From NCBI RefSeq assembly GCF_029531655.1, contig NZ_JANRMI010000001.1, positions 1,054,001 through 1,118,000 of the forward strand: a stretch of DNA of 64,000 nucleotides, given 5' to 3'. Both the position numbers and the translations under genes were made by a program. The stretch comes from Bdellovibrio svalbardensis (GTDB taxonomy: Bacteria > Bdellovibrionota > Bdellovibrionia > Bdellovibrionales > Bdellovibrionaceae). Below, piece by piece: positions 30,956 through 48,074 of this stretch. Positions within the stretch are counted from its first letter, which is position 1. Each line of letters begins with the position of its first letter. Below the pieces are notes generated by a model. It was not told the DNA's origin, did no database searches, and was given only the letters and a program-made list of their open reading frames with translations.

Positions 30956-30979
30956 CTTTAGAGAGGCTGCAGAAGAAGA

Positions 30980-32303: not shown

Positions 32304-32326
32304 TCCTAGGGTTGATTCAATATTTA

Positions 32327-32357: not shown

Positions 32358-32484
32358 CAACTGTCTTAAGTTTTGGAAATGTAGGTGTAACATTCTTAAC
32401 TGAAATTACAGAAGTCTGGATTGATCCCCTTATAGTCAGCCAATAGAGTGCCCTCATTGTTAGAAAGCAAATAGGGGGTGTATC

Positions 32485-33075: not shown

Positions 33076-34006
33076 ATCAGTTCAAGATTTCTTTTTTAAA
33101 CCGATTCAGGTTCAAAACGTCGCTTTAATGAGGATTGGGATCGGTGTTATTCTTTTACTCAATTGGTATATGATATGGAGTCACCTTGGCGTATTCTATA
33201 GTGACTCCGGCTTGGTCTCTTGGGAGACGATGAAGCATTATATCTCACCGAATGTGTTCAATCTTTATTTCTATTTTCCTAATGATCCTCGAACAACTTG
33301 GTTGTTTGGAGTAATAAACTTACTGGGTGCCATTGGCGTGTTCTTGGGGCTATTCACGCGAACGTCGATTGTATTGACCTTCCTGACGTTGGTGGCTTTC
33401 CATGAGAGAAATATTTTTATTTTGAATAGCGCGGATTTAGTTCTGAGAAATTTTCTCTTCTTTATGTTGTTCTCGCCAGCTGGTGAAGCCTATTCTTTAG
33501 ATCGATGGATTAAGGTGAAGCTTGGTAGCGCGTCTGAAGAGCCAGTTCTGCGTAGGCCTTGGGCTTTGCGACTTATGCAGTTACAGTTCTCTTTCATATA
33601 TATTGCGACAGTATTATTTAAAATGAAGGGAACTTACTGGGCTGATGGAACGGCAATTTACATTGCCACTCGATTGGATGAGTTTTTCCGAATACAGCTT
33701 TCGATTCTCAATAGCATGTTTGCAATAAAAATGCTTACTTGGGGTACTCTGCTCGTGGAGTTTGCTTTGGGAACTTTGATTTGGATTCGCGAATTGAAGT
33801 ATTGGGTATTGCTTGCAGGAGTCGGTTTGCATTTAGGAATCGAGCTGACTATGAGTATTCCATTGTTCGAATGGGTTATGATTGTGACTATGCTTTGCAT
33901 GGTTGATCCCGCGGATATTAATAAAGTTGAGTTGTGGTTGCGTCAAAAAATGAGATCAAGAAATAGATCTGGTGTAGTCACTTCTCCCTCAATTAGTGTT
34001 TTGTAA
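33053..34006 (+). CDS. HTTM-domain (gamma-carboxylase-like) membrane protein
   Basis: 317 residues, a multi-pass membrane protein of the HTTM family related to vitamin K-dependent gamma-carboxylase. Family features are the first membrane segment with VALMRIGIGVILLLNWY, the segment with GLFTRTSIVLTFLTLVAFHER and FLFFMLFSPAGEAYSLDRW. The bacterial members mostly have unknown substrates. It is the second gene of a pair with the MFAPNP-type partner and is followed by a strong terminator. Confidence 0.82.
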   Translation: MKLATITKSVQDFFFKPIQVQNVALMRIGIGVILLLNWYMIWSHLGVFYSDSGLVSWETMKHYISPNVFNLYFYFPNDPRTTWLFGVINLLGAIGVFLGLFTRTSIVLTFLTLVAFHERNIFILNSADLVLRNFLFFMLFSPAGEAYSLDRWIKVKLGSASEEPVLRRPWALRLMQLQFSFIYIATVLFKMKGTYWADGTAIYIATRLDEFFRIQLSILNSMFAIKMLTWGTLLVEFALGTLIWIRELKYWVLLAGVGLHLGIELTMSIPLFEWVMIVTMLCMVDPADINKVELWLRQKMRSRNRSGVVTSPSISVL

Positions 34007-34037
34007 ATCGGACGCAGATGAAGAGAAAAATCAATCA

Positions 34038-34072
34038 ACGCCAGTCGAAAAACGACTGGCGTTTTTTATTTT
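34038..34072 (+). terminator. Intrinsic terminator after the HTTM gene
   Basis: ACGCCAGTCG (34038-34047) and CGACTGGCGT (34053-34062) form a perfect 10-bp stem with a 5-base A loop, followed by TTTTTATTTTT. Confidence 0.92.
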
Positions 34073-34232
34073 TGAAATTGTGTCCTCGATGAAAATGATT
34101 TCAAGCATTCAATATATTAAATTTGTCAGAAATTAAAAGACTGAAACAGACAAAGATTTGGCTAACAAAATAAAAACCCATCGAATAGTTTTTTCTCCAC
34201 GAACAAAACACAACCCATAATTTGGAGGAAAT

Positions 34233-37200
34233 ATGATTCGAAAGCACAGGAATATTATTCTTGTTGCAGGTATGGCTCTATTTGTGAATCCGGCGTGGGC
34301 AAAGGAAAGTACCGTAAAGGGATATTCTCTTGCACCATCTTCTTCACAGGTAGCGAATAAATCTGCAGAAGGTAAGTCAAAGAAAAATCTAAGTGATTCT
34401 ACCGAGTACAAAACTGGATTTCCAGTGCGCTCGACATCAAAAAGTGTCAGTGGACAAAGTTGTCAGACCATCAAAGGGAAGCTAGTTTGTACAAATACCT
34501 CAAGCCCTAGTAGTACTACCGGTAATAACGGTAACAACGGCAATAACGGTAACAACGGTAACAACGGAAACAACGGAAACAACGGCAATAACGGAAGTAC
34601 CGGTGGAAGTGGAAGTACTGGTAACAACGGTAATAACGGTAATAACGTAAATAACGGTAATAACGGTAACAACGGTAACAACGGTAACAACGGAAGCACC
34701 GGTGGAAGCGGAAGTACTGGTAACAACGGTAATAACGGTAATAACGGTAATAACGGTAATAACGGTAATAACGGTAATAACGGTAATAACGTAAATAACG
34801 GTAATAACGGCAATAACGGTAATAACGTAAATAACGGTAATAACGGCAATAACGGTAATAACAGTAATAACGGCAATAACGGTAACAACGGTAATAACGG
34901 CAATAACGGCAATAACGGTAACAACGGCAATAACGGTAACAACGGCAATAACGGCAATAACGGCAATAACGGTAATAACGGCAATAACGGTAATAACGGT
35001 AATAACGGTAATAACGGCAATAACGGTAATAACGGTAATAACGGCAATAACGGCAATAACGGTAACAACGGCAATAACGGTAATAACGGTAATAACGGCA
35101 ACAACGGTAACAACGGCAACAACGGTAATAACGGCAACAACGGTAATAACGGTAACAACGGAAACAACGGAAACAACGGAAATACCGATTGCGAACCGAC
35201 TACAGGTCATCCATCCACATCCACAACTAGCGGTGAGAGTACAACCAGGGGTGAGACTGTCTCCACAAGCACAACTAGCGGTGAGAGTACAACCAGAGGT
35301 GAAACTGTCTCCACAAGTACAACTAGTGGTGAGACTGTCTCCACAAGCACAACCAGTGGTGAGACTTCTTCAACAAGTACAACTAGTGGCGAGACAACTA
35401 CGACCAGTACGACTAGTGGAGAGACGTCTTCAACAAGTACAACTGGTGGAAACGAAGAGAAGAAGAAGCTTAAGCACAAGTTGGAACCTCTGTTCCATCT
35501 CGCGTTCGACTTCGGCTCTTACATTGTCAACTTGACTCCTCAAGTGACATTGCCTCAACCGAAATCAGCAGATTTCTATGCTTATGCTCCAAAGGCCGCA
35601 AGCTCTATGGATACATTGGTAGTTGGAGATTATCGTGATGGTTTCCAAAAAACTGTTTGGGGATCTGTTGAGGTAGGTTTAGGTGTACAACTGAAATTCT
35701 GGTTCGAAAATGCATCAGGAATTGCAAATCAATTCTGGGCATATGTCGGAGTATTGCCAGTTGTTGGTAAAGACACAACTTCAACTCGTTATGTAGGTAC
35801 TTTGGCCAAAGCTTACGATATGGGAGGAAGATGGCAAATTCCAGAATCTGCATCTGATCTAAATACCTGGGATCCAGGAGATAGTATTTCTTACGTTTCT
35901 CGTGGGGGAGTTATCTTCATGGGTAGCGCAGGGGTAGGACCTGTTGGCGTTGGCGCTAGCAGATTGGCTTCTGGTATTTGGGAAACTTATGTAGAAAAAG
36001 TTGGAAGTCATAAGGCTTATGTGAAGATTACGAATGGTCGACTTGATAGCTTCTCAGCATTCTTGAGCGCTTCAATTCTGACAATTTCGAAAACTTACTT
36101 TAAATCTGCCGATGACGGATTCTCTTATCTGTTTGATTTGAGCACAGAGACAGGTCGCAAAGCATATGAGGATATGATTCGCGGTAACGTGATCGCATCA
36201 GATATCTTGTCGAAAGAGAAACCAAGAAACCTGGTTGAAAATGCTCCTGTTCTAAAAGTAGAAACGTTCAGAACAGTTTCTACTGGTACAACAGTAAGCA
36301 AAGCGTTCGCTATTCCAATTATTTGGGATAAAACATACAGTACAGGTCGAGTGCAATCGTTCACTTCATCTGATCTGCATATCGATCGCAATACAGCCCG
36401 TGTTCACTACGGTATTTTCACGACTTCAGAAGATACAAACTTCTGGTTCAAACATAAAGAAGAAGACTTTATGTTCTATGGTGCGAAGTACTCTATTGAA
36501 AATTGGGATACAAAAGCTCGCACAGAAAGTATGTTCGGTAACTACGGATATGCATTCCGCCACGAGAAGAGTAACTCAAGCCGTCTTCAAGCCGGTATCA
36601 GAGAGCTTATTGAAAAAACAGGTCTTCAGGCTTTGATGGTCAAAATCCCATATGATGGTGATCTTGGTTACACAGGTCTAGAGTTCAACGTTATGTTTAA
36701 CGAAGCGAATACTATTAGAATGATGAATGCGGTACGCTCTATGAGCCAGGCTGACTTCGTTTCTAGAGTTTCTTCACTTGCAGATGCATACTTGATGAAG
36801 TCTGTAGATCCTTTGGCAATGTGCCCAGTGGCGAAAGGTCAGACTAAGCAAGTTGCTCAGCAACCGGATGCAAACTGCGCTTACACTTTGAAAGCGACGA
36901 CTGCAACAGGCGCGAGCAAAATGTACGCGGCTTTGAGACGTATGGCTGCAACAGTCAATACAGATCCTCGCGCGTTCTCTGCCGCTTATGGTCAGTTCGG
37001 TGAGGCAATGAATGAAAATGCATTCATGTTCAAAACTGCGATGAATCTTGCGGGCCCTGGTGCGACGATTGAATACCTCATTGAGGGTACGAAATTGTCT
37101 ATGTACTACAAACAATGGGTGACGGATGCGTCAGGTCGTTGGATTGTGGTGACTCAGCCAAGCAAAAAAGGACTTCCTTTCAAACCGGAACTTCGACACT

Positions 37201-37274
37201 CACGTGTTCGCGGTATCGTGATTGGAAACAATCCTGGTGATGTTATGAATCCAAATTTCGCGCCGTTATTCTAA
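34233..37274 (+). CDS. Large secreted protein with Gly-Asn-Asn triplet repeats
   Basis: 1013 residues. A signal peptide (residues 1-23, ending NPAWA) is followed by a Ser-rich spacer. Residues 97-317 are almost pure Gly-Asn-Asn triplets, broken by two STGGSGSTG islands and by a few Val or Ser replacing Gly. Next come about 80 residues of Thr/Ser-rich repeats (TTSGE units) and a KKKLKHK stretch. The last 600 residues form an ordered, aromatic-rich domain I do not recognise. The layout suggests a surface or periplasmic protein with a long flexible stalk. TTGGAGGAA precedes ATG 34233; own terminator. Monocistronic. Confidence 0.8.
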   Translation: MIRKHRNIILVAGMALFVNPAWAKESTVKGYSLAPSSSQVANKSAEGKSKKNLSDSTEYKTGFPVRSTSKSVSGQSCQTIKGKLVCTNTSSPSSTTGNNGNNGNNGNNGNNGNNGNNGNNGSTGGSGSTGNNGNNGNNVNNGNNGNNGNNGNNGSTGGSGSTGNNGNNGNNGNNGNNGNNGNNGNNVNNGNNGNNGNNVNNGNNGNNGNNSNNGNNGNNGNNGNNGNNGNNGNNGNNGNNGNNGNNGNNGNNGNNGNNGNNGNNGNNGNNGNNGNNGNNGNNGNNGNNGNNGNNGNNGNNGNNGNNGNNGNNGNNGNTDCEPTTGHPSTSTTSGESTTRGETVSTSTTSGESTTRGETVSTSTTSGETVSTSTTSGETSSTSTTSGETTTTSTTSGETSSTSTTGGNEEKKKLKHKLEPLFHLAFDFGSYIVNLTPQVTLPQPKSADFYAYAPKAASSMDTLVVGDYRDGFQKTVWGSVEVGLGVQLKFWFENASGIANQFWAYVGVLPVVGKDTTSTRYVGTLAKAYDMGGRWQIPESASDLNTWDPGDSISYVSRGGVIFMGSAGVGPVGVGASRLASGIWETYVEKVGSHKAYVKITNGRLDSFSAFLSASILTISKTYFKSADDGFSYLFDLSTETGRKAYEDMIRGNVIASDILSKEKPRNLVENAPVLKVETFRTVSTGTTVSKAFAIPIIWDKTYSTGRVQSFTSSDLHIDRNTARVHYGIFTTSEDTNFWFKHKEEDFMFYGAKYSIENWDTKARTESMFGNYGYAFRHEKSNSSRLQAGIRELIEKTGLQALMVKIPYDGDLGYTGLEFNVMFNEANTIRMMNAVRSMSQADFVSRVSSLADAYLMKSVDPLAMCPVAKGQTKQVAQQPDANCAYTLKATTATGASKMYAALRRMAATVNTDPRAFSAAYGQFGEAMNENAFMFKTAMNLAGPGATIEYLIEGTKLSMYYKQWVTDASGRWIVVTQPSKKGLPFKPELRHSRVRGIVIGNNPGDVMNPNFAPLF
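34521..35183 (+). repeat. 9-base tandem repeats coding Gly-Asn-Asn
   Basis: About 70 tandem copies of a 9-base unit, mostly GGTAATAAC with third-position variants (GGC, GGA, AAC for AAT). Every unit keeps the frame, so gain or loss of copies would change stalk length without a frameshift. Because the repeat lacks stop codons in other frames, long meaningless frames appear on the opposite strand (34463-35210). Confidence 0.95.
35214..35450 (+). repeat. Degenerate repeats coding Thr-Ser-Gly-Glu units
   Basis: About nine imperfect copies of a 24-36-base unit built on ACAAGTACAACTAGTGGTGAG, encoding STTSGE with TV or TS insertions. It forms the second, Thr/Ser-rich part of the stalk of the Gly-Asn-Asn protein. 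Confidence 0.85.
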
Positions 37275-37316
37275 TAACGGAGTGAAATAAAAGCTCTGAA
37301 TATTTTCAGAGACGGC

Positions 37317-37356
37317 ACAGCCGCTGATCGAAAGATCCGCGGCTGTTTTGTTTTGG
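37317..37356 (+). terminator. Intrinsic terminator after the repeat protein
   Basis: ACAGCCGC-T-GATC, a GAAA tetraloop and GATC-C-GCGGCTGT (37317-37346) form a 12-bp stem with one mismatch, followed by TTTTGTTTTGG. Confidence 0.85.
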
Positions 37357-37366
37357 TCTTGAGCAC

Positions 37367-38917
37367 TTACAACTCAAAGTTATAGACGGCGGCTTCTCCC
37401 ATAACGTCTCCCAAAGACAAGGCCAATTGGCGAGCATTTGATTCCCAAGTCTCTGGACTGTTACCGTTGAGTTTGTTGACGAGTTCTTGGAATACAGTCC
37501 ATTTTGCCATGAACTTTGGCTGATTCGCTTTGGCGGCCGGAGAATTTTTTAGATATTCCATCACGACTGGAAGAGACTGTTCTTTTTCAAACGCCCTGAG
37601 CATATCAAGTGCAAGGACATTCGTAGTTCCTTCCCAGATTGAAAATACTTGGCCGTCACGCACTAAGCGTGGCAGACCCGTATCTTCAACATAGCCAGCA
37701 CCACCAAATATCTCGACAACTTCACTGGAAACGATCATCGCTTTTTTTGCAGTGTAAAGTTTTAAAACTGGAGTGAGGGTGCGAAGCAAAGTCCTTTCCG
37801 CTGCAGAGATTTCACCAACTTCTTCTTTTCCCAGCAAATGTGCCACCAAAAAACTAAAGGCGAAAGAATGTCGGAAATCCTCTTCGAGCCAACGTAATGT
37901 TTCGCGGTGTAGAGGGTGGTCGATCAGCAATTTCCCAAAGGCTGTTCTTTTTTTGGAGTAGCTTTGTGCAAGGTCCAAAGCTCTGCGCATGTGACCCACG
38001 GCGCACATGGAATTATAAATGCGTGTGATATTCAAGACGCTCGCAATGCGCTTCACACCTTCACCTTCGCCACCCATCATGCGGGCGGGTGTGCCCTGAA
38101 GGCTCAACTCGGCGGTTGGCAAAGCTTTAGTTCCAAGTTTGTCTTTGAGGCGATGGATCTGGATGTTGTTCAGTTGTCCCTGGTTGTTGCGAAGCTCAAG
38201 ATAGAAAAGGCTTAAGCCACGCGATCCGGCTGGAGCCCCAGCGGGGCGAGCCAGAGTCAGCGCCATTTGCGATGTCGTGGCGGATGTGAACCATTTTGTT
38301 CCATGCAAAGTATGGGTTGCTCCAAAGGAACTTTGTCCTTGATAGGGATGTGCATCCGTTGAAGTTCCACTGACATCGGAGCCGCCAGTTCGCTCCGTCA
38401 TCCATTGTCCCGCAGTCCAAAAGCTTGTGGAGTCTTTGGAAAGCAGGTGGGACATTCCGCGGGTTTTCAGCTCCGGAGTTCCATAAAGCTCCAAGGCTCG
38501 TGCGGCCCCGTCAGTCATCGCCAAGGGACAGGAGAAAATGGCGGAGCTGGGGGAATATATATAGAGTAAAGCCATTTGATAAACGCGAGAAAAAGCTCCG
38601 AATCGGCGTTCATAGGCGGTGGCGACAATCCCTTCCTCCGCTGCGACTTTCTCAAGCTGCTTCCAGCCATTGGAGACCTTAATATCGTCGATGCGGCGGC
38701 CCCAGGGATCAAATGGAACGTGAACAGGGGGCTGAGCCTCAGCCTCTTGGGCCCAATCGAGCATATCCGTAACCGCTCTTTGACCAAGATGAGCGAGATG
38801 AGGCAGGGCTTCCCTTTGGCAATCCGGGGGAAGAACCTTTGTTAAAAACTTCTTCAGGATTTCGTCAGATTCGAAGGTATTCGTAAGGCTGGGGCCTTCT
38901 TGATAAAAGTTTTTCAT
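37367..38917 (-). CDS. Acyl-CoA dehydrogenase family protein (AidB-like)
   Basis: 516 residues, an FAD-dependent flavoprotein. MTERTGGSDVSGTST matches the FAD-binding region of AidB and long-chain acyl-CoA dehydrogenases (AidB has MTEKQGGSDV), and the C-terminal SIWEGTTNVLALD with RLVRDGQVF is the family signature near the flavin. The C-terminal 70 residues carry a further helical part. Likely catalyses alpha,beta-oxidation of an acyl-CoA, or acts as an AidB-type protein; its neighbours give no hint of substrate. Transcribed alone on the minus strand from ATG 38917. Confidence 0.85.
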   Translation of the reverse strand: MKNFYQEGPSLTNTFESDEILKKFLTKVLPPDCQREALPHLAHLGQRAVTDMLDWAQEAEAQPPVHVPFDPWGRRIDDIKVSNGWKQLEKVAAEEGIVATAYERRFGAFSRVYQMALLYIYSPSSAIFSCPLAMTDGAARALELYGTPELKTRGMSHLLSKDSTSFWTAGQWMTERTGGSDVSGTSTDAHPYQGQSSFGATHTLHGTKWFTSATTSQMALTLARPAGAPAGSRGLSLFYLELRNNQGQLNNIQIHRLKDKLGTKALPTAELSLQGTPARMMGGEGEGVKRIASVLNITRIYNSMCAVGHMRRALDLAQSYSKKRTAFGKLLIDHPLHRETLRWLEEDFRHSFAFSFLVAHLLGKEEVGEISAAERTLLRTLTPVLKLYTAKKAMIVSSEVVEIFGGAGYVEDTGLPRLVRDGQVFSIWEGTTNVLALDMLRAFEKEQSLPVVMEYLKNSPAAKANQPKFMAKWTVFQELVNKLNGNSPETWESNARQLALSLGDVMGEAAVYNFEL

Positions 38918-38991
38918 GGTCCTAGTGTAGGTGTCGGCAGAGAGGGGGACAACAATATGTCATCAAGCCCGCCTTTTTTTCGAGAAAACTC

Positions 38992-39020
38992 TTGCCGACC
39001 TGTAATTGTATCCATATAAG
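38992..39020 (+). promoter_or_regulatory. Sigma-70-like promoter for the serine protease gene
   Basis: TTGCCG (38992-38997), a 17-base spacer and TATAAG (39015-39020), about 22 bases before the GTG start of the protease lipoprotein. Inferred from consensus only. Confidence 0.5.
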
Positions 39021-39042
39021 AGCCCCTCGTTTAGGAGGCGCC

Positions 39043-39930
39043 GTGTTCCGTTTATTGTTAGCAGCAAGTTTAGTTACTTTGGTATCCTGCACACCCAAAT
39101 CTTCGGGTTTGATCGAAAAGGGCCAAAATTCTTCAATTATTAATGGCCATGAAGTTAAGGAAGGCGCTCCCATCACAGCCAGTATCGTGGCGTTGTTTGA
39201 TACAAAAGAGAACTTCATTTGTACCGGTTCTTTGATCGCACCAAATATCGTTTTGACAGCAGCTCATTGCATGCCAAACCGGGCTTCAGATTTGAAAGTG
39301 GTTTTCGCTAATAACGTTGATTCAGTTTTGAACGCTCGCGAACAAGACATTCTTCAAACTTATGTTTTGACAGCAACCGATTTCAAAACCTATTCAACAT
39401 GGAAAGAGAATTCGCAAGTTCAAGTCGACAGAGGAGACATCGCGCTTGTGAAATTCAAAGGACAAGCTCCTGAAGGTTACAAACCTGCGACCTTCCTTCC
39501 AGACCAAAGCGCTCTTAAAAAAGGGGCGATGGTGACTGTTGCTGGTTACGGTGTGGATCTTGTTGAGACAAAAGACTTAGATCCGAAAAAATACCGTGGC
39601 AACCTCGATGAGGCGATTGAGTTCGGCGAAGTAATCTGCGACGACAATAAACGTAACTGCATGACTGTGGACATGAGTGGTGACGGCATTCTTCGTCAAA
39701 CTGAAGCTCCGATTTCATCTCTTCAACAAACTGAATTGCGCTTGGATGAGAGCAAAGCGGGAACATGCAGCGGTGACTCTGGCGGTCCTGCATACATCGA
39801 AAAAGATGGTAAGTTCTATCTTTTCGGAATCACGAGCCGAGGCAGCGTGCTCTGCGATGACACGGGCGTATACACAAATGCTTTGGAATATAAGCAGTGG
39901 ATCGCGGATACCATCAAGGTTTTGAAGTAG
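39043..39930 (+). CDS. Trypsin-like (S1) serine protease lipoprotein
   Basis: 295 residues, predicted envelope lipoprotein: LVSC lipobox with Cys16. The chymotrypsin-fold catalytic triad is complete: His75 in LTAAHC, Asp132 in RGDIALVKF and Ser246 in TCSGDSGGPA. The mature enzyme probably begins near Ile32 (SIINGHEV), matching the activation site of trypsin-type zymogens, so it may need processing. GTG 39043 is the start, with AGGAGG just upstream; the frame is open 17 codons earlier without a ribosome site. Secreted proteases are common in predatory bacteria; its target is unknown. Confidence 0.9.
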   Translation: MFRLLLAASLVTLVSCTPKSSGLIEKGQNSSIINGHEVKEGAPITASIVALFDTKENFICTGSLIAPNIVLTAAHCMPNRASDLKVVFANNVDSVLNAREQDILQTYVLTATDFKTYSTWKENSQVQVDRGDIALVKFKGQAPEGYKPATFLPDQSALKKGAMVTVAGYGVDLVETKDLDPKKYRGNLDEAIEFGEVICDDNKRNCMTVDMSGDGILRQTEAPISSLQQTELRLDESKAGTCSGDSGGPAYIEKDGKFYLFGITSRGSVLCDDTGVYTNALEYKQWIADTIKVLK

Positions 39931-39937
39931 TAATTAA

Positions 39938-39963
39938 ATCTGAGCAAGCTCCATTGCTTAGAT
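39938..39963 (+). terminator. Hairpin after the serine protease gene
   Basis: ATCTGAGCAA (39938-39947) and TTGCTTAGAT (39954-39963) pair through ten positions with one wobble and a 6-base loop, 8 bases after the protease stop. There is no T tract, so it may be a weak terminator or a 3'-stability hairpin. Confidence 0.4.
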
Positions 39964-40002
39964 AAAAAGATAGTGATTTTGACTCCCATAGTTTGCTGAC
40001 AT

Positions 40003-40040
40003 ACGAATTTCTTTTGTTTTTAACAACAGGAGAAATTCGT
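40003..40040 (+). promoter_or_regulatory. Inverted repeat over the leader ORF ribosome site
   Basis: ACGAATTTCT (40003-40012) and AGAAATTCGT (40031-40040) are a perfect 10-bp inverted repeat with an 18-base spacer. The right arm overlaps the AGGAG (40028-40032) that serves the short leader ORF starting at 40042, so folding would partly hide that ribosome site. Confidence 0.6.
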
Positions 40041-40041
40041 A

Positions 40042-40077
40042 ATGAACGTCTCCTTGATTTACTGGAGACGTTTATGA
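40042..40077 (+). CDS. Putative 11-residue leader peptide
   Basis: A short ORF with 11 codons (MNVSLIYWRRL) has AGGAG 9 bases before its ATG. Its TGA stop (40075-40077) overlaps the ATG of the next gene (40074-40076) as ATGA. It contains Tyr-Trp-Arg-Arg near its end. The overlap and ribosome site argue for translational coupling; that it is translated is inference. Confidence 0.45.
   Translation: MNVSLIYWRRL
40045..40072 (+). promoter_or_regulatory. Hairpin sequestering the ribosome site of the chalcone-isomerase-like gene
   Basis: AACGTCTCC (40045-40053) and GGAGACGTT (40064-40072) form a perfect 9-bp stem with a 10-base loop. The right arm contains the only ribosome site (GGAG, 40064-40067) before ATG 40074. 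The whole stem lies inside the leader ORF, so a ribosome translating the leader would open it. Confidence 0.6.
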
Positions 40078-40727
40078 AATCAGTGTCCAACTTCTTGGTA
40101 TCCTCTGCTCTTGTCCTGACTTGCTCACTCGCTCAGGCTTCTCTTTTAAAACTTGAAAAAGGTCCTCGCACTGTCGAGGGAATCAATATTTCCCAATCGG
40201 CTGATGCGATTGTGGGCGATCAGTCTGTCCATTTGGGAACTGTGGGTGCTGGCGTTCGTTGGAAGAAAATTCTTCTGGCGAAGTTGAAAGTCTATGTTGC
40301 GCAGCTGATGGTTGAAAGTCCCGATCGCTTTATTAAGAAAGACAAAGAGGCATTGAAATCACTTGATGACAGCAGCACAGTTGCCATTCAATTGACTTTC
40401 CTGCGGACAGTGGATGCTCCGACAGTGCAAAACTCCTTCCGTGATGCCTTGATGGCCAATAAAATTGATTTAAGTCATGATGCAGTCAAAACTTTTCTTA
40501 GCGCGGTAAAGAACGGTGGCGATGCCACTTCTGGAAATAGTTTAACAATCCTCATTCAAAAACACAGCGATGGGACTGAGACCCTGGTGTACGAAGATTC
40601 AACGGGCATGCAAACCCAAGTTCAAAGTGACAAGGGATTGACGCAGAAAATTCTGGCGATTTGGTTGGGAACTCCCAGCGATGATGGTGTGGCATCGTGC
40701 AAGTCAGATCTTCTTTCAAATAACTAG
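40074..40727 (+). CDS. Secreted chalcone-isomerase-like protein
   Basis: 217 residues with a signal peptide (residues 1-22, SLAQASLL). The mature protein reads as the chalcone isomerase-like domain PF16036: VHLGTVGAGVRWKKILLAKLKVYVA is typical (shortened here to GAGVRWKKILLAKLKVYVA), followed by STVAIQLTFLRTVDAP. Bacterial members are mostly of unknown function and probably bind a fatty acid or other small ligand instead of a flavonoid. ATG 40074 has TGGAGACG upstream; the upstream leader contains a nested regulatory structure. A lipoprotein gene follows after 9 bases, so they form an operon. Confidence 0.72.
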   Translation: MKSVSNFLVSSALVLTCSLAQASLLKLEKGPRTVEGINISQSADAIVGDQSVHLGTVGAGVRWKKILLAKLKVYVAQLMVESPDRFIKKDKEALKSLDDSSTVAIQLTFLRTVDAPTVQNSFRDALMANKIDLSHDAVKTFLSAVKNGGDATSGNSLTILIQKHSDGTETLVYEDSTGMQTQVQSDKGLTQKILAIWLGTPSDDGVASCKSDLLSNN

Positions 40728-40736
40728 GATTTGCAG

Positions 40737-41729
40737 ATGATTTTTTCTTTTAAAACTTTTGCAGTCTCAGTTCTGGTGATTTCATTCTGTCTGTCGTTGA
40801 CGGCCTGCGATGCCGTCGATGCCATGAGTGCGACCAAAGAAATCCCCGAGAAAATGGATCAGACCAATAGCCGCATGAGCAATATGCTGGAGGAGATGAA
40901 GAGAACTACTTCCGGAGTTCATGATCAAAGTTTGTTGATTCCTCTGGAAAATATTTTGAAAGAGGAAAATCACGATTCCCTGGCTCCGGTTCCTTTTAAG
41001 TTGATGCCTTATGGAAAGAAATTTGCGGAGGCGGCGACAGCCCAAGAGCTGGTGGATTTGACATATATTTGGATCAAAGAAGTTGAGGTGTCTTTGCCGA
41101 CCAAAGACATTGATGAGGCCACGGGTTCAGAGATTCCCTATACGCGCAGGCAAGTGGCAAATATCAACAACGAGAAGATGGCCAGATTGGTGGCCTTGCA
41201 AGTTATTGCGGGATTTACTCCTCAGCCAATTGTAGAGGAAATCATTCGAATGCACATTGTTGGCGCACCCGAACAGGGGAGTCGTCGTTTTGAAGACACC
41301 GCTTTGGCATTTTTGATGTTAAGAGCAATGTTTATTCGTGATGTTCTTCTTCAGGAAAGTCTTTTGGCATCGCCTTTGGATAATATTGGAAAAGTGGAAG
41401 AGGCAATAAAGTATGCTCGGCAGATTGAGTTCATTGCCAGACTTCGATTTGCAGATAAAGTGTCGTTTAAGACGCGAGGATTTATCGATGAACATGGGCA
41501 ACAACTTCCTGTAGAGGAGCAGCCTCAAGAGCAGTTGAAAGGAGATGTTGCGGCAAAGCTTTGGCGCAGTATTCTCGAAAAAGCTCAGACTGATTTACGT
41601 GTTGTTGAACGCGAAGTTGGCAGCAACAGTGAAGAAGATAAAAAAATCTATGAACAAGAAAAACTCAGAGCGGCCCAGGGGCTTCAGACCTTGGAGGACT
41701 ATGTGAGATCTTGGGAGCCTCAGTCCTGA
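40737..41729 (+). CDS. Lipoprotein of unknown function
   Basis: 330 residues. The signal peptide ends in the lipobox LTAC (MIFSFKTFAVSVLVISFCLSL precedes it), so it should be membrane anchored. The mature part is predicted mostly helical with two recognisable stretches: TNSRMSNMLEEMKRTTSG and a 200-residue helical domain ending in a coiled-coil-like segment. I recognise no family. ATG 40737 has AGGA 7 bases upstream; the frame is open two codons earlier. It follows the chalcone-isomerase-like gene by 9 bases. Confidence 0.7.
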   Translation: MIFSFKTFAVSVLVISFCLSLTACDAVDAMSATKEIPEKMDQTNSRMSNMLEEMKRTTSGVHDQSLLIPLENILKEENHDSLAPVPFKLMPYGKKFAEAATAQELVDLTYIWIKEVEVSLPTKDIDEATGSEIPYTRRQVANINNEKMARLVALQVIAGFTPQPIVEEIIRMHIVGAPEQGSRRFEDTALAFLMLRAMFIRDVLLQESLLASPLDNIGKVEEAIKYARQIEFIARLRFADKVSFKTRGFIDEHGQQLPVEEQPQEQLKGDVAAKLWRSILEKAQTDLRVVEREVGSNSEEDKKIYEQEKLRAAQGLQTLEDYVRSWEPQS

Positions 41730-41740
41730 TCCCTTACTCT

Positions 41741-41777
41741 GAATACTATCTTTTGTGTGAATCAACAGATAGTATTC
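41741..41777 (+). promoter_or_regulatory. Perfect inverted repeat before the YeiH-type gene
   Basis: GAATACTATCT (41741-41751) and AGATAGTATTC (41767-41777) are a perfect 11-bp inverted repeat with a 15-base spacer, between the previous stop (41729) and the ribosome site GGAGGG (41785-41790). It has no T tract. It could be a regulator operator or an RNA hairpin in the leader. Confidence 0.6.
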
Positions 41778-41798
41778 TTGGGACGGAGGGATCTGTTC

Positions 41799-42767
41799 AT
41801 GCAAACTCTTGAAAAACCACTTTCTCATCATATTAAGGCCTCCGTGATTCCTGTTGCGGGGATTATGTGTTTGACGCCCTATATTTCCTCAGCGGTTGCA
41901 TTGATTTTGGGAATTGTCATTGCCGTTGCCTTGGGGAATCCCTATATCGCGCGCACCCGAAAACTAACCTCAACTTTGCTAAGTCTTTCAGTCATGGGAC
42001 TTGGTGCAGGGATGGACTTGGGAGTGGTTGGTAAAGTTGGTTTGGCTGGGGTGGGATACACTGTCGTGGGAATTTCGACCACCTTAGTTTTGGGATACCT
42101 TATTGGTAAACTTTTACGAACAGAGCGCGACACCTCTATTTTGATTTCTGTTGGTACAGCCATTTGCGGGGGCAGTGCCATTGCGGCTGTGGCACCAACA
42201 ATTCGCGCTAAACATCATGAAATCTCAATTGCTCTGGGAACAGTATTTTTGCTGAATGCACTGGCCTTATTTATTTTTCCACCGATTGGTCATATTTTGA
42301 ATTTGAGTGAGACTCAATTTGGTTTGTGGAGTGCCTTGGCCATTCATGACACCAGCTCTGTGGTGGGATCGACCTTGCAGTATGGCCCTCATGCTTTGGA
42401 AGTGGGGACCACAGTAAAGCTGGCTCGCGCATTATGGATTGTTCCCGTTACATTTTTATTTAGCTACTTGTTCGCTCGAGGTCAGAAGAGCCAAGGAGCT
42501 GAAAAACCAAAACGTCCGTGGTTTATTTTAGGTTTCTTGATAGCGGCCGCTCTGGTTACGTGGATTCCTGAAATTCGCCCAGCCGGTCATATGGTGAATG
42601 AAGTTGCTAAAAAGGTTTTGGTGTTGACGTTGTTTTTAATCGGCACCAATTTGACCAAAGAAACAATTCGCAGTGTTGGCTTAAAGCCTTTGATCCAAGG
42701 CATTTCTTTATGGATAGTTGTCGCCAGCGCGACTTTGGGAGCCATCCTGATAGGTTGGATTCATTAA
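41799..42767 (+). CDS. YeiH-family putative sulfate exporter (UPF0324)
   Basis: 322 residues, ten or eleven hydrophobic segments. LSLSVMGLGAGMDL, VGTAICGGSAIAAVAPTIRA and LWSALAIHDTSSVVG are hallmarks of the YeiH family. These transporters have been linked to sulfate or sulfite export and to resistance to sulfur compounds; direct data are sparse. ATG 41799 with GGAGGG 8 bases upstream is chosen; the frame is open 14 codons earlier. The last 4 bases overlap the convergent Nramp gene. Confidence 0.88.
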   Translation: MQTLEKPLSHHIKASVIPVAGIMCLTPYISSAVALILGIVIAVALGNPYIARTRKLTSTLLSLSVMGLGAGMDLGVVGKVGLAGVGYTVVGISTTLVLGYLIGKLLRTERDTSILISVGTAICGGSAIAAVAPTIRAKHHEISIALGTVFLLNALALFIFPPIGHILNLSETQFGLWSALAIHDTSSVVGSTLQYGPHALEVGTTVKLARALWIVPVTFLFSYLFARGQKSQGAEKPKRPWFILGFLIAAALVTWIPEIRPAGHMVNEVAKKVLVLTLFLIGTNLTKETIRSVGLKPLIQGISLWIVVASATLGAILIGWIH

Positions 42768-44044
42768 TTGAATATCTGCACGATCAGCCAAATGTTCGCG
42801 GTGCTGATGACTGCGAACAGCCCCCAGGTGAGAAGCTTCAAAGGTCGACGATTCGCAAAGCTGCCCATCAGTTTCTTATCGCTGGTGAACTTCACCAGGG
42901 GATATACGGCAAAGGGCAGTTGCAGACCTAAAATGACCTGAGTGATGACTAATAATTTTCCGGTGGAATCATCCCCAAGCCACGCCACACCAATAAAAGC
43001 TGGAATCAAAGCCAGACTTCTGGTTATCAAACGAATTTTCCAGCTGGGAAGCTGCAGGTTCAAATAACCTTCCAAGATGACCTGTCCCGCGATGGTGCCC
43101 GTGAAAGTGGAACTTTGCCCTGAAGCTAAAAGAGCGATAGCAAAAAGCAAGGGGGCGAGCCAGCTGCCCATGATGGGCTCCAGCAAGCGATGAGCATCTT
43201 GAATGTCAGCAACTTCGTTCCTTCCCGTTCCATGAAATGCGGAAGCAGCTAGAATTAAAATGGCGGAGTTTACCAAGAAGGCCAGGCTTAAAGAGACGAC
43301 GGTGTCGATGGTTGAGAAGCGAATCGCCTGACGTTTTTCCACTTCGCTTACGCCGATCTTTCGAGTCTGTACGATTGCAGAGTGTAGATAAAGATTGTGG
43401 GGCATTATGGTGGCACCGACGATGCCAATCGCCAGATACCAACTATGAGGATCGTGAGCGAGGCTTAGCGATGGAATGTAGCCTGCTAAGACTGATGGCA
43501 TATGGAGATCTAAAAGCAGAAGCTCCACTAAATAGCAAATCCCGATCGTAGCCACTAAGCCAAGAATAATAGCTTCGATTTTTCGAAAGCCTTTTCCTGC
43601 AAAGGCCAGCACAATAAAGGTATCTAAACAGGTGATCGCAACTCCTGTGAGCAGGGAACAACCGAAGAGAAGTTTGAATGCCAAGGCGCTGCCAAGGACT
43701 TCGGCGATATCGGTGGCGATAATGGCGATCTCTGCCAGAAACCATTGAAAGAGATTTGTTTTTTTGCCGAATTGCATGCGTGAAGCCAAGGCAAGGTCCA
43801 TCCCCGAAGCAATTCCTAATTTCAAACTGAGATACTGAAGTGCGATGGCACCCAGGCTGGAAAATAAAACAATAGAAAGAAGAAGATATCCAAAGCGAGA
43901 ACCGGCTTCGATGTCGGTGGCCCAATTACCGGGATCCATATAGCCGACCGAGACAAGAAGTCCCGGCCCTAAAAATCTGAAAAACTTCGCCCAGGGGGTG
44001 CCATCCTTTGGAATGCTGATGCTTCCTTTGAAGTCGGACATCAT
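42764..44044 (-). CDS. mntH: Nramp-family divalent metal transporter (MntH)
   Basis: 426 residues, proton-coupled uptake of Mn(II) and other divalent metals across the inner membrane. The metal site of Nramp proteins is visible: DPGNWATDIEAG near residues 37-48 (TM1) and GATIMPHNLYLHS (TM6, with MPHNLYLHS). About eleven hydrophobic segments. Starts at ATG 44044 or the adjacent ATG 44041, behind GGGGG. It runs convergent to the YeiH gene and overlaps its end by 4 bases, so transcription may interfere. Manganese uptake often protects against oxidative stress. Confidence 0.92.
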   Translation of the reverse strand: MMSDFKGSISIPKDGTPWAKFFRFLGPGLLVSVGYMDPGNWATDIEAGSRFGYLLLSIVLFSSLGAIALQYLSLKLGIASGMDLALASRMQFGKKTNLFQWFLAEIAIIATDIAEVLGSALAFKLLFGCSLLTGVAITCLDTFIVLAFAGKGFRKIEAIILGLVATIGICYLVELLLLDLHMPSVLAGYIPSLSLAHDPHSWYLAIGIVGATIMPHNLYLHSAIVQTRKIGVSEVEKRQAIRFSTIDTVVSLSLAFLVNSAILILAASAFHGTGRNEVADIQDAHRLLEPIMGSWLAPLLFAIALLASGQSSTFTGTIAGQVILEGYLNLQLPSWKIRLITRSLALIPAFIGVAWLGDDSTGKLLVITQVILGLQLPFAVYPLVKFTSDKKLMGSFANRRPLKLLTWGLFAVISTANIWLIVQIFN

Positions 44045-44067
44045 CCCCCCGGCATAATACAGTGTGA

Positions 44068-44697
44068 TTACTGTGCAGCGGCCTCGATCTTAGCTTCGCA
44101 AGCAGCAAGAGATTGTTCAAGCTCTACGCGCTTTTCTGCCAAGCTTTTGCGATAGTCCTGATAACGCTCAATGGTTTCGAGTAAGTTCTCTTTGGTCACT
44201 GCTGTCACTTGACCTTTTTCGTTGTAACCAACATCCACAGTGGCATTTGTGTCGCTGCTTTTCTTTTTCTTATTGAAGTTCTTCCATTCAGTCATCATTT
44301 CAGGATTCATTGCCTCAGGACCTTGAACGGGCTTTACGGGTGTGCCATCACCGCCGTATTTTTTTGAATTGGCTTTGTTATTACAAGCGTTCACTTTGCC
44401 CGCAAGACCTTTGCTGGAGTATTCGCGAATTCCATAAAGAGCTTCATACTCTTTAAAAGTTTCATACTTCAGATTTTGCAAATATTCTGTCAATTGAGTT
44501 TTGTCCATGTGCATGACGTTGCCTTCTTGATCGACACCAATGGAGGAATCGCCACCAAGAGATTCTTCTTTTGAAAGATTAGTGGAAATGCTTTCATCCT
44601 TCAAAACTTGAGTCTCACGCTTTTTGGCACTTGAACATCCAGTAGAATAGCCCGCGATGAAGAGAGCTGTTGCTGTAAATAAAAGAGTCTTTTTCAT
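44068..44697 (-). CDS. Lipoprotein paralogue B
   Basis: 209 residues with a lipobox (STGCSS). It is a shorter paralogue of the next gene: both contain the segments SIGVDQEGNVMHMDK/VIGLNEKDEMVMQKK, a central LQNLKYETFKEYEALYG-like block and a second block (VGYNEKGQVTAVTKENL/IGLDEKKNLVAVSTDYL). Long helical segments and charged residues predominate. No known family. It lies 18 bases after the end of its paralogue, in the same operon. Confidence 0.78.
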   Translation of the reverse strand: MKKTLLFTATALFIAGYSTGCSSAKKRETQVLKDESISTNLSKEESLGGDSSIGVDQEGNVMHMDKTQLTEYLQNLKYETFKEYEALYGIREYSSKGLAGKVNACNNKANSKKYGGDGTPVKPVQGPEAMNPEMMTEWKNFNKKKKSSDTNATVDVGYNEKGQVTAVTKENLLETIERYQDYRKSLAEKRVELEQSLAACEAKIEAAAQ

Positions 44698-44715
44698 AGG
44701 TCACTCCGTCTTAAG

Positions 44716-45666
44716 TTAGTTGTTCCAAAGATTGCTGCCTCTGCGCAGACAGTTTTTTCCGCCAGGCACGATATCGGCGGAGTCATTCATCCAAGACTTC
44801 AAAGAAGGATTTGTGGTGTTGTCTTCGATCTCGGATAATTTCGCTCCTTTGTCAAAAGCCAAAGCCCAGCCACCAAGACGCAAAACATTGGGGCGTTCTG
44901 CTTGATTGGAATCGACGACCTTTAATGAATTCACCGGCATATCCTGGTCAAAGTCTTCTTTCATGATCCATTGCTTGGACAAAGCGGTCTTTACCAGATC
45001 ATTCATCTTTGCCCCTTGTCTGACGTAACGGCATACATACCGATCGAGTTCGGATGTTGTATTGGTAATTGGCGGGTACTTGCTAAGATCAAGTTTCGCC
45101 TGTTTTGCATTATAGGTTTTACGCTCTAAATTGGCGTTGCAGATCTTAACTTGAGTCTCGTACCAGTCTTTACGCTTTTTATAGGTGGCCTTATAGTTTT
45201 CAAAGCGGCGAATACGGTCTCTCAAATAGTCAGTCGAAACTGCGACAAGATTTTTCTTTTCATCCAGACCGATTTTCTGGAATTGATCTTCGCGATCGGT
45301 AAGGCGCGCTTTTTCCGGCATCTTCACGTAGGTGCCTTCGCCGCCCATCTCTGCAGAGTTCTCTTTTGTCTGGCATTCTTCCAGAACACCCCAAAGACCT
45401 CGATTGCCGGATTCATCCCCGCCATAAATGGTATCTTCAAGGCCATAGACTTCGAATTGAAGTTGGCGAACATAGTCAGCAAGGCGTATTTTCTTTTGCA
45501 TGACCATTTCGTCTTTTTCGTTCAAACCAATAACGGTCCCGCCACCCATATCATCTGTTTTTTGAATCTCAGTATTCAGCTTTTCAGCTTTATTGGGATT
45601 CGATGCGCATGCAGCAAGAATAAATGATGCTGTAATTGGAAGAAGGAGAGAACTAACTTTCTTCAT
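44716..45666 (-). CDS. Lipoprotein paralogue A
   Basis: 316 residues with a lipobox (LAACAS). It shares two blocks with its neighbour (TVIGLNEKDEMVMQKK, residues about 45-60; QKIGLDEKKNLVAVSTDYL, residues about 130-150) and adds a C-terminal part of about 120 residues with paired Cys (residues 174 and 214) absent from the shorter paralogue. The IGL(N/D)EK motif occurs twice within the protein, suggesting an internal duplication. Function unknown; probably outer-membrane anchored. First gene of the operon. Confidence 0.78.
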   Translation of the reverse strand: MKKVSSLLLPITASFILAACASNPNKAEKLNTEIQKTDDMGGGTVIGLNEKDEMVMQKKIRLADYVRQLQFEVYGLEDTIYGGDESGNRGLWGVLEECQTKENSAEMGGEGTYVKMPEKARLTDREDQFQKIGLDEKKNLVAVSTDYLRDRIRRFENYKATYKKRKDWYETQVKICNANLERKTYNAKQAKLDLSKYPPITNTTSELDRYVCRYVRQGAKMNDLVKTALSKQWIMKEDFDQDMPVNSLKVVDSNQAERPNVLRLGGWALAFDKGAKLSEIEDNTTNPSLKSWMNDSADIVPGGKNCLRRGSNLWNN

Positions 45667-45731
45667 TTGATATCACCTCAGTTAAGGTTGGATGCAGAAA
45701 CAAGTTTGCATTTGTAAAAATCTACTCCTTC

Positions 45732-45771
45732 AAAATGAGATAGGGTAGTGGCAAAATGAGACAGGGTAGTG
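45732..45771 (-). repeat. Two 19-base direct repeats, 21 bases apart
   Basis: AAAATGAGATAGGGTAGTG (45732-45750) and AAAATGAGACAGGGTAGTG (45753-45771) differ at one position. The period of 21 bases equals two helical turns, so proteins bound to both copies would lie on the same face. They lie 66-105 bases upstream of the lipoprotein operon start (minus strand), a normal place for an activator or repressor site. Confidence 0.55.
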
Positions 45772-45934
45772 TTTGCTGCAAATTGTGTTTCGGGCAATGG
45801 TCTTGATGCGTCCGTCCACTTGTATGTATCTGAAACTAGTTGATATTTATGAACCCGGTATTGACGCATATTTGCTCGTCTTTTGACTTTGGTCCCGATG
45901 ATTAAGGGAATCTTAATCTTGGGGTAAAAAAGAA

Positions 45935-45960
45935 TTAATACCGTTTTAATCGGTGATTAA
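45935..45960 (+). promoter_or_regulatory. Operator-like inverted repeat
   Basis: TTAATACCG (45935-45943) and CGGTGATTAA (45951-45960) form an imperfect inverted repeat (one extra base in the right arm) with a 7-base centre, 31 bases upstream of the -35-like element at 45991. Possible operator for the small secreted gene. The rest of the 378-base spacer 45667-46044 has no gene. Confidence 0.35.
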
Positions 45961-45990
45961 GGACTCTTTGCTAATCTGTCTTCAGTGGAT

Positions 45991-46018
45991 TTGATGATAA
46001 TTAAAGTTATCTATAACC
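45991..46018 (+). promoter_or_regulatory. Sigma-70-like promoter for the small Lys-rich secreted protein
   Basis: TTGATG (45991-45996), a 16-base spacer and TATAAC (46013-46018), 27 bases before the ATG at 46045. Consensus match only. Confidence 0.45.
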
Positions 46019-46044
46019 AAATAAAAAAACCAACGGAGGTTTTT

Positions 46045-46254
46045 ATGAAATTCGCAACAGTTCTTATGTCTCTTCTTTTCGCTGGAATGATGGCTCACGC
46101 TCAAGGAGAAGCTCCTGCAACGACACCTGCTGGTGGTGCTGAAATGAGCGCTCCGAAAGCTGAAACATCAGTTAAAAAAGATAAAAAACACAAAAAACAC
46201 GGCAAAAAAGAGAAATCAGAAAAATCAGAAAAAACTGAAGGCATGACTAAGTAA
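46045..46254 (+). CDS. Small secreted Lys-rich protein
   Basis: 69 residues. A signal peptide (FATVLMSLLFAGMMAHAQ) precedes a mature part of about 50 residues that is Ala/Pro/Thr-rich and then Lys/Glu/Ser-rich (KKDKKHKKHGKKEKSEKSEK). Low complexity and highly basic. ATG 46045 has CGGAGG upstream; the frame is open 20 codons earlier. Own terminator. Perhaps a cell-wall or nucleic-acid-binding peptide; function unknown. Confidence 0.72.
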   Translation: MKFATVLMSLLFAGMMAHAQGEAPATTPAGGAEMSAPKAETSVKKDKKHKKHGKKEKSEKSEKTEGMTK

Positions 46255-46280
46255 TTAAGTTTTGCAAATGCTGATGAAAA

Positions 46281-46308
46281 GGGAACTGGAGACGGTTCCC
46301 TTTTTTAT
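46281..46308. terminator. Intrinsic terminator
   Basis: GGGAAC (46281-46286) pairs with GTTCCC (46295-46300), with an 8-base loop and TTTTTTATT behind. It sits between the small secreted gene and the convergent orphan binding-protein gene, which ends at 46311. Confidence 0.75.
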
Positions 46309-46310
46309 TG

Positions 46311-47096
46311 CTAGAAGTGATAGTAACTATTGAAGTCTTCTTCCGGAACGTATTTCAGTATGATTTTCTTGAGAGTCCCATCTGTTTTCATATCTTGGAT
46401 AACCTTCTCAAACATTTTGAGTTCAAGGGGCTTCATTCTTTTCTTGGAAAAGAAGATAGCGAGTTCCAGGCGTTTACTGTCATCAGCAACTACCATCGTC
46501 TTTTCTTTGATTTTATATTGAATTGCATATCGACGTAGGAAGATTGGTGAGGTGAATGCGGCTTGTACTTTGCCTTTCGAAAGGAGATCCATAACACCAT
46601 CTGGGAAGGCGACAAAGGTGGCTCGATGGGCCTTTTGAAGGGCGGCTATTTCCACGGAACTTGAAAAGAAGCTGCCTCCCGAAAGCATGGCAAAATTGAC
46701 CTTGGAGTCTTTGAGGTAGTCTGCAACTTTGGCGCCGGGTTTGTAAAATTTATTTTGAACCAATAAAAGACGATTCACTGAATATATGGGGATAGAGGTG
46801 GCAAATTTGCTCCAGGATTCGTTCGTAAAAGAAAAAGCAAATATATCTATGCGATTATTCCGCAAATCTTCAGCGGCTCTGGAGAATGAAATAACTCTTT
46901 CATTGTAGACGCAATCAAGTCGTTTTTTAAGTTCGTTGAAGATCTCAATGGAAATAAGATTTGCACCGGCCTTGTCTTTTGAAACAGCATCCGTATTCGT
47001 GCCTACGCTGTAGACTCGATTGCAAAGGGCCTTTGCATGGAGTGGGTTGGCAGTTAAAAGACAGAAGAATAGGATTTTTGACAGGATGGTCTTCAT
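46311..47096 (-). CDS. Periplasmic substrate-binding protein (SBP_bac_3-like)
   Basis: 261 residues with a signal peptide (ending PLHAKA). The rest fits the family 3 extracellular solute-binding fold, which usually feeds amino acids or opines to an ABC transporter or acts as a sensor input: DLRNNRIDIFAFSFTNE and FPDGVMDLLSKGKVQAAFTS are typical. No permease or ATPase gene is adjacent, so it is an orphan. ATG 47096 gives the signal peptide; the frame is open 11 codons earlier. Confidence 0.75.
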   Translation of the reverse strand: MKTILSKILFFCLLTANPLHAKALCNRVYSVGTNTDAVSKDKAGANLISIEIFNELKKRLDCVYNERVISFSRAAEDLRNNRIDIFAFSFTNESWSKFATSIPIYSVNRLLLVQNKFYKPGAKVADYLKDSKVNFAMLSGGSFFSSSVEIAALQKAHRATFVAFPDGVMDLLSKGKVQAAFTSPIFLRRYAIQYKIKEKTMVVADDSKRLELAIFFSKKRMKPLELKMFEKVIQDMKTDGTLKKIILKYVPEEDFNSYYHF

Positions 47097-47224
47097 TTGT
47101 GAAGTATATGGGCGCATTGCCGAACACACAAGCTGCCTGATGACAGATGGCTAAATACTGACGTTGAAAATACAAGGACAAGTCGGAACGAAGTCGCCGT
47201 ATGCTTTTCTAAAAAGGAGTCACT

Positions 47225-47638: not shown

Positions 47639-47656
47639 TAGAAAAGAATCCAACCC

Positions 47657-47695
47657 GCAGGCTTGTAGCCACCTTTAAGTGGTTGCGAGGCCTGC
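47657..47695 (+). other. 39-base hairpin overlapping a promoter-like element
   Basis: GCAGGC-TTGTAGCCAC (47657-47672) pairs with GTGGTTGCGA-GCCTGC (47679-47695) through 16 positions with three wobbles and one bulged G; the loop is CTTTAA. It begins 19 bases after the CBS gene stop and has no T tract behind it. Its right arm contains the TTGCGA that could be a -35 element for the czc genes. Confidence 0.5.
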
Positions 47696-47712: not shown

Positions 47713-47718
47713 TTGGCA

Positions 47719-48063: not shown

Positions 48064-48074
48064 TTCCAAGTCTT

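What the first reader, a model, noticed from the sequence alone, without database searches (positions are those of the whole stretch)
40003..40077. Nested leader: a short ORF melts the hairpin that hides the next gene's ribosome site
Directly visible: AACGTCTCC and GGAGACGTT (40045-40072) form a perfect 9-bp stem holding the GGAG before ATG 40074. The same bases lie inside an 11-codon ORF (40042-40077, MNVSLIYWRRL) with its own AGGAG, and its stop overlaps the next start as ATGA. A second perfect 10-bp repeat (40003-40012/40031-40040) overlaps the leader's own ribosome site. Inference: translation of the leader opens the stem and permits reinitiation on the chalcone-isomerase-like gene, and the upstream stem can shut the leader. 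This would be a two-step, purely RNA-based control. The Tyr-Trp-Arg-Arg codons near the end could be a stalling site.
Basis: partly seen in the sequence, partly recalled or inferred. Interest (0 to 1): 0.62.

Follow-up and report, generated by a model that had tools for sequence, protein, structure and literature searches.

The report
Hairpin silencing a gene's read-through transcripts

Summary
The sequence features are real: two stem-loops (40002-40041 and 40042-40075), an 11-codon ORF between them with its own AGGAG, and an ATGA stop/start overlap. The gene is a secreted chalcone-isomerase-fold protein of a Bdellovibrio. Relatives change the interpretation. The nearest ortholog (G005) has one hairpin and no leader ORF. 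Both window hairpins align to it, so the leader is most likely the leftover start codon of a tandem duplication. The hairpins covary (46/48 cells paired, five pairs changed on both sides). All seven orthologs share a promoter (nnGAC[TG]-N17-TA) whose -10 box is the 5' arm of the hairpin, so a transcript from that promoter would lack the arm. Strong hairpins occur only in the three genomes where the upstream gene points the same way. Best explanation: a read-through silencer, as at phage T4 gene e. Only here, after duplication, would leader translation be needed to open the second stem. Exploratory scans of four Bdellovibrio genomes show the same bias: excess behind co-directional genes, little or none behind divergent genes, none inside operons, G-U tolerant, absent in a small E. 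coli sample. Nothing was tested experimentally. Stalling at Tyr-Trp-Arg-Arg has no support.

The parts
39979..40007 (+). predicted promoter: -35 TTGACT 39979-39984, 17-nt spacer, -10 TACGAA 40002-40007; start of transcription expected near 40013-40015
   Evidence: [TG][GTC]GAC[TG]-N17-TA occurs exactly once in the ~1.5 kb upstream of each of the seven orthologs, always at this place; random rate 0.019 per 110 nt. No RNA data.
40002..40041 (+). hairpin 1 (17 RNA pairs, two G-U, 6-nt loop); 3' arm holds the leader's AGGAG, 5' arm overlaps the -10 box; can form only in read-through RNA
   Evidence: three compensatory pair changes against the G005 hairpin
40028..40032 (+). Shine-Dalgarno AGGAG of the leader ORF (aligned with the single SD of the G005 ortholog)
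40042..40077 (+). 11-codon leader ORF MNVSLIYWRRL, stop overlapping the next start (ATGA); probably a duplicated start codon, found only in this genome
40042..40075 (+). hairpin 2 (12 RNA pairs, one G-U, 10-nt loop) sequestering GGAG 40064-40067 of the main gene
   Evidence: aligned with the single G005 hairpin
40074..40727 (+). secreted chalcone-isomerase-fold protein, 217 aa
   Evidence: orthologs in six genomes; predicted fold matches chalcone isomerases in the PDB, best E 2.2e-6, mean pLDDT 67; no Pfam family at 0.001
39010..39930 (+). co-directional upstream gene, trypsin-like serine protease: the likely source of read-through RNA
   Evidence: PF00089, E 3.6e-24; no intrinsic terminator found on the + strand of 39800-40200

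Best explanation
The conserved element is a hairpin that pairs the gene's Shine-Dalgarno site with sequence inside the gene's own promoter. RNA reading in from the co-directional protease gene contains both arms and should be untranslatable. RNA started at the gene's own promoter begins after the 5' arm and escapes. In this genome the promoter-proximal segment (-10/hairpin/SD/start codon) has been tandemly duplicated. Copy 1 keeps the promoter-overlapping arm and contributes the start codon of the 11-codon leader. Copy 2 lies wholly inside the gene's own transcript and closes the gene's SD. Here, translation of the leader, free to start in own-promoter RNA, is expected to open stem 2 and hand ribosomes to the gene through the ATGA overlap, while read-through RNA is locked twice. 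Shown by computation: the structures, the covariation, the promoter/arm overlap, the link with upstream-gene direction, and the genome-wide bias. Inferred: the start of transcription, the silencing itself, translation of the leader, the coupling, and the history of the duplication.
For: (1) Covariation: four hairpins (two here, G005, G018) pair in 46/48 cells, five of 12 pairs changed on both sides; at most 5/500 shuffles reach any measure; slid controls pair about 50%. (2) Promoter: nnGAC[TG]-N17-TA once per locus in 7/7 orthologs, at this place; the 5' arm overlaps its -10 in G000, G005 and G018. (3) Direction: strong hairpin in G000, G005 and G018, whose upstream gene is co-directional, not in G007, G020, G016 and G035, whose upstream gene is divergent (3/3 v 0/4, Fisher 0.029). 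(4) Duplication: copies 1 and 2 align to the single G005 element (2/2000 and 0/2000 shuffles as good); -10 to ATG is 66 nt here and 24-33 nt elsewhere. (5) Genome-wide, excluding this gene: co-directional genes with >=60 nt upstream, stems with >=8 Watson-Crick pairs, 20/368 v 4.2 expected (0/500 permutations); divergent 8/372 v 3.7; operon-internal 0/435 v 3.1; in the three replicate genomes 9/123 v 1.4, 3/150 v 2.0, 0/158 v 1.1. (6) RNA not DNA: in co-directional genes stems with G-U 29 v 9.8 expected, with A-C 8 v 3.0; divergent G-U 9 v 8.2. (7) The frequency falls with distance from a co-directional gene, 16% to 2%.
Against: No transcript start or translation is mapped. Automated promoter prediction over all hits does not show 5' arms preferring positions upstream of the start (17 v 13.3, P 0.14). 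Folding of own-promoter RNA depends on the length folded: the G005 SD is 27% open with 40 nt of coding sequence but 1% with 60; the leader SD here falls from 67% to 1% as more downstream sequence is added; and with a ribosome imposed on the leader the main SD is only 24% open. The similarity of the two window copies to each other is weak (79/2000 shuffles as good). The direction link for this gene rests on seven genomes. The genome-wide scan was exploratory and uses a crude gene caller; at >=8 pairs co-directional v divergent is only p 0.02 (at >=7, p 0.0004).
Confidence: 0.58

Rival explanations
1. One reading: a regulated RNA leader in which translation (or stalling) of the short ORF switches the gene through stem 2, and stem 1 controls the leader.
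For: SD-bearing ORF crossing stem 2, ATGA overlap, stem 1 over the leader SD. The only such SD-stem plus coupled short ORF among 743 sampled genes.
Against: Leader absent in all relatives; stem 1's 5' arm lies in the promoter; no conserved peptide or signal. The leader is explained as a duplication product.
Confidence: 0.14
2. The inverted repeats are DNA operators: a dimeric repressor covers the -10 region and start site.
For: 5' arm overlaps the -10; palindromes are typical of operators.
Against: Sequence differs between species while pairing is kept, with G-U pairs; co-directional excess is G-U tolerant and largely absent in divergent genes.
Confidence: 0.12
3. The hairpin serves the upstream gene, as a terminator or 3'-end stabiliser that happens to cover the next SD.
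For: Also predicts the co-directional bias and the fall with distance.
Against: T-tract after the 3' arm no commoner than elsewhere (4/40 v 25/331); other terminator-like hairpins equally frequent; loops of 10-35 nt; the SD-proximal arm is kept in pairing through turnover.
Confidence: 0.1
4. Neutral: an accidental duplication and chance stems without function.
For: Only one genome has the double arrangement; the leader is not conserved.
Against: Stem quality tops the genome sample; compensatory changes.
Confidence: 0.06

Closest known systems
Phage T4 gene e (lysozyme) and I-TevI read-through silencing (PMC3014915, PMC2988022)
   Same: SD sequestered in transcripts from upstream promoters; the 5' strand of the stem is encoded in or next to the gene's own promoter, so proximal transcripts lack it and are translated.
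   Different: Chromosomal genes of a predatory bacterium rather than phage late genes; sigma-70-like promoter; here duplicated with a leader ORF. Experimental silencing shown only for T4.
Translational coupling by RNA unfolding or re-initiation, -4 nt ATGA overlaps, ribosome-delivering short ORFs (review PMC12548453)
   Same: Short upstream ORF ending in ATGA, downstream SD inside a stem that the leader crosses.
   Different: Coupling not tested; leader confined to one genome and probably created by duplication.
Fold-back inhibition of read-through transcripts in insertion sequences such as IS10 and IS50 (own knowledge; not found in the library searches)
   Same: Hairpin formed only in RNA entering from outside hides the RBS.
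   Different: Protects transposase genes; no mobile element seen here.
Leader-peptide translational attenuators such as ermC (own knowledge)
   Same: Short ORF and hairpins over the next RBS.
   Different: No conserved peptide, no alternating structures, no inducer indicated.

Membership tests
T4 gene e-type read-through silencing hairpin | SD/start sequestered in a stable stem in upstream-initiated RNA | tested here: met
   SD accessibility about 0 in read-through RNA for G000, G005 and G018
T4 gene e-type read-through silencing hairpin | 5' strand of the stem lies in the proximal promoter, upstream of its transcription start | tested here: met
   5' arm overlaps the conserved -10 in G000 (hairpin 1), G005 and G018; promoter predicted, not mapped. 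For hairpin 2 of the window it is not met: both its arms lie inside the own transcript.
T4 gene e-type read-through silencing hairpin | proximal transcripts have an open SD | tested here: inconclusive
   27-70% open with 40 nt of coding sequence, 1-48% with 60 nt
T4 gene e-type read-through silencing hairpin | upstream transcripts actually enter the gene and are not translated | not testable with these tools
   needs RNA-seq and reporters; no + strand terminator seen
Translationally coupled leader ORF | stop/start overlap or close spacing | tested here: met
   ATGA, -4 nt
Translationally coupled leader ORF | downstream SD occluded unless the leader is translated | tested here: inconclusive
   occluded: yes; with a modelled ribosome on the leader the SD is 24% open
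Translationally coupled leader ORF | conservation of the leader | tested here: not met
   absent in six orthologs
Known RNA families (Rfam 15) | match at gathering score | tested here: not met
   none in 30000-50000

The most novel reading that the evidence does not exclude
Bdellovibrio chromosomes use T4-like read-through-silencing hairpins as a general way to insulate genes from a co-directional neighbour: roughly one in ten genes with their own promoter behind a co-directional gene pairs its SD with promoter-proximal sequence. At this locus a duplication of such an insulator has turned one gene into a leader-coupled gene.
Probability: 0.42. Interest if true: 0.75.

Novelty: new variant of a known kind. 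Interest (0 to 1): 0.6.

Why it matters
Bacterial genes sit close together and read-through is common. If a bacterial chromosome silences read-through at the level of translation, by folding the promoter's own sequence onto the SD, promoter choice would decide not only how much RNA is made but whether it can be translated at all. This is known for a few phage and transposon genes; the library searches here found no genome-wide account in a bacterium, though most subscription papers are not held. In Bdellovibrio, which alternates two nearly exclusive transcription programmes (PMC3627812), it would keep neighbouring attack-phase and growth-phase genes apart. It also gives a simple route for the birth of coupled leader ORFs: duplication of a translation start region.

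Tried and rejected
Rfam search: nothing. Canonical sigma-70 scan: none at strict thresholds; the promoter came from comparing orthologs. FliA promoter (TTAAG-N16-CCGATA, PMC3627812): does not fit the orthologs' spacing (read by eye). Genome-contig scans: no relative with the window protein as query, six with the alignment (the nearest, B. bacteriovorus kdesi, has the contig length of G016). Recurrence of the arm motif in the genome: five GTCTCC..GGAGAC sites, fewer than the nine of the reversed control, so not a dispersed element. Intrinsic-terminator explanation: not supported. Test of 5'-arm position against predicted starts over all hits: inconclusive. E. coli control: 0 of 53 co-directional genes v 0.5 expected; small. 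Signal-peptide enrichment among hits: not seen with a simple rule (6/150 v 12/318 at >=8). Coupled short ORFs elsewhere: only two unlike cases in 743 genes.

Full report
WHAT IS THERE. As RNA they form two adjacent hairpins: hairpin 1, 40002-40041, 17 pairs with two G-U, -18.4 kcal/mol; and hairpin 2, 40042-40075, 12 pairs with one G-U, -16.4 kcal/mol. Hairpin 1 holds the AGGAG (40028-40032) of an 11-codon ORF, MNVSLIYWRRL. Hairpin 2 holds the GGAG (40064-40067) of the next gene, whose ATG overlaps the ORF's stop as ATGA. The exact hairpin-2 pattern never occurs in 100 shuffles of the window. Among 277 sampled genes of the genome with an SD, this gene has the best SD-containing stem; its ortholog is also the best of 126 in G005.

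THE GENE. The gene encodes a 217-aa secreted protein with no Pfam match at 0.001 and no NCBIfam match. Its predicted fold (mean pLDDT 67) matches chalcone isomerases and chalcone-isomerase-like proteins in the PDB (best E 2.2e-6). The upstream gene is a trypsin-like protease on the same strand. No intrinsic terminator was found between them on the + strand.

RELATIVES. Six orthologs at 50-74% identity exist in the 66 held genomes of the family. None has the leader ORF. The nearest, G005, has the same neighbours and a single hairpin, TAAGAACGTCTTCTTACCTTTAAAAGGAGACGTTCTATG. Aligned from the upstream side, this corresponds to the window's hairpin 1; aligned from the ATG, it corresponds to hairpin 2 (2/2000 and 0/2000 shuffles as good; the two window copies against each other 79/2000). 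The distance from the -10 box to ATG is 66 nt in the window and 24-33 nt in all others. The simplest reading is a tandem duplication of the hairpin/SD/start-codon segment. The leader ORF then begins at the duplicated start codon and ends at the ATGA that all these genes share.

THE HAIRPIN IS CONSERVED BY PAIRING, NOT SEQUENCE. With the four hairpins (two here, G005, G018) aligned by their arms, 46 of 48 cells pair. Five of twelve pairs change on both sides and others by G-U. At most 5 of 500 shuffles match any measure, and slid controls pair about half the cells. The alignment was set by hand to this register, so it leans towards the structure; the slid controls are the fairer comparison.

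THE PROMOTER OVERLAPS THE HAIRPIN. The pattern [TG][GTC]GAC[TG]-N17-TA occurs exactly once in the roughly 1.5 kb upstream of each of the seven orthologs, always 53-95 nt before ATG; the random rate is 0.019 per 110 nt. In the window it is TTGACT 39979-39984 and TACGAA 40002-40007. The 5' arm of hairpin 1, and of the single hairpin in G005 and G018, coincides with this -10 box. A transcript from this promoter, starting about 40014, cannot form that stem. Only RNA reading in from upstream can. This is the anatomy described for phage T4 gene e and I-TevI (PMC3014915, PMC2988022): the 5' strand of the inhibitory stem is encoded around the proximal promoter, upstream-initiated RNA is not translated, and proximal RNA is.

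A PREDICTION THAT HELD. If the hairpin guards against read-through it should be found where the upstream gene is co-directional. It is strong in G000, G005 and G018 (co-directional upstream genes) and not in G007, G020, G016 and G035 (divergent upstream genes); 3/3 v 0/4, Fisher 0.029. G007 has a 6-pair version.

GENOME-WIDE TEST. I called genes crudely in 1.7 Mb of this genome and asked how often the SD lies in the 3' arm of a stem with a 10-35 nt loop, against permutations that swap upstream sequences between genes of the same class. Loop classes were explored on this genome, then applied to G005, G018 and G023. Leaving out this gene and its orthologs, the pooled counts of stems with at least 8 Watson-Crick pairs are: co-directional with at least 60 nt upstream, 20/368 v 4.2 expected (0/500 permutations); divergent, 8/372 v 3.7; operon-internal, 0/435 v 3.1. 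In the replicates alone they are 9/123 v 1.4, 3/150 v 2.0 and 0/158 v 1.1. At 7 pairs the co-directional and divergent classes differ at p 0.0004. Frequency falls with distance from the co-directional gene, 19/116, 12/101, 8/110, 1/44, and stays low for divergent genes. Stems containing G-U are in excess in co-directional genes (29 v 9.8), more than stems containing A-C (8 v 3.0), while divergent genes show no G-U excess (9 v 8.2). That asymmetry is expected of selection on the sense RNA and not of DNA palindromes. Orthologous hairpins elsewhere turn over in sequence while keeping pairing, for example the gene starting MYETSDFKKG and the gene starting MKILL. A 400-kb E. coli sample shows no excess (0 of 53, 0.5 expected). 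T-tracts after the stem and other terminators are not enriched.

MECHANISM. In relatives with one hairpin: read-through RNA is silenced, own-promoter RNA is translated. In this genome: own-promoter RNA lacks the 5' arm of hairpin 1, so the leader SD is comparatively open, but contains hairpin 2 entire, so the main SD is closed; translation of the leader is then the likely way in, by the known routes of coupling (PMC12548453). Read-through RNA is closed twice.

WEAK POINTS. No transcript start, read-through or translation has been measured. Predicted openness of the SD in own-promoter RNA depends strongly on how much downstream sequence is folded, and a modelled ribosome on the leader opens the main SD only to 24%. 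Automated promoter calls do not show that 5' arms in general lie upstream of the start. The gene caller is crude and the scan was exploratory.

VERDICT. A new variant of a known kind: a T4-like read-through silencer on a bacterial chromosome, here duplicated into a leader-coupled form, and possibly one of many in Bdellovibrio.

Noticed in passing
window 39942-39966: A hairpin between the protease stop and the promoter (ATCTGAGCAA..TTGCTTAGAT; in G005 ATTTGTGCAA..TTGCACAAAT, a perfect 10-bp repeat) keeps pairing with compensatory changes; no T-tract follows. The TTGATTGC-N11-GGGAC stretch in the same place is shared by several orthologs, perhaps an activator site.
   Followed up: partly
window 34191-34232: The gene at 34233 also has its SD in a stem (TTTTCTCCA..TGGAGGAAA) behind a co-directional gene, though a terminator-like hairpin precedes it.
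   Followed up: no
window 34520-35184: About 74 copies of a 9-bp repeat encode a long Gly-Asn-Asn tract in a secreted 1013-aa protein.
   Followed up: no
window 39969-39978: About 10 bp (one helical turn) extra between the conserved upstream block and the -35 box compared with G005.
   Followed up: no
genome G000, C7:102211-102846: A second copy (43% identity) of the chalcone-isomerase-fold gene, of the type found in nearly all genus members.
   Followed up: no
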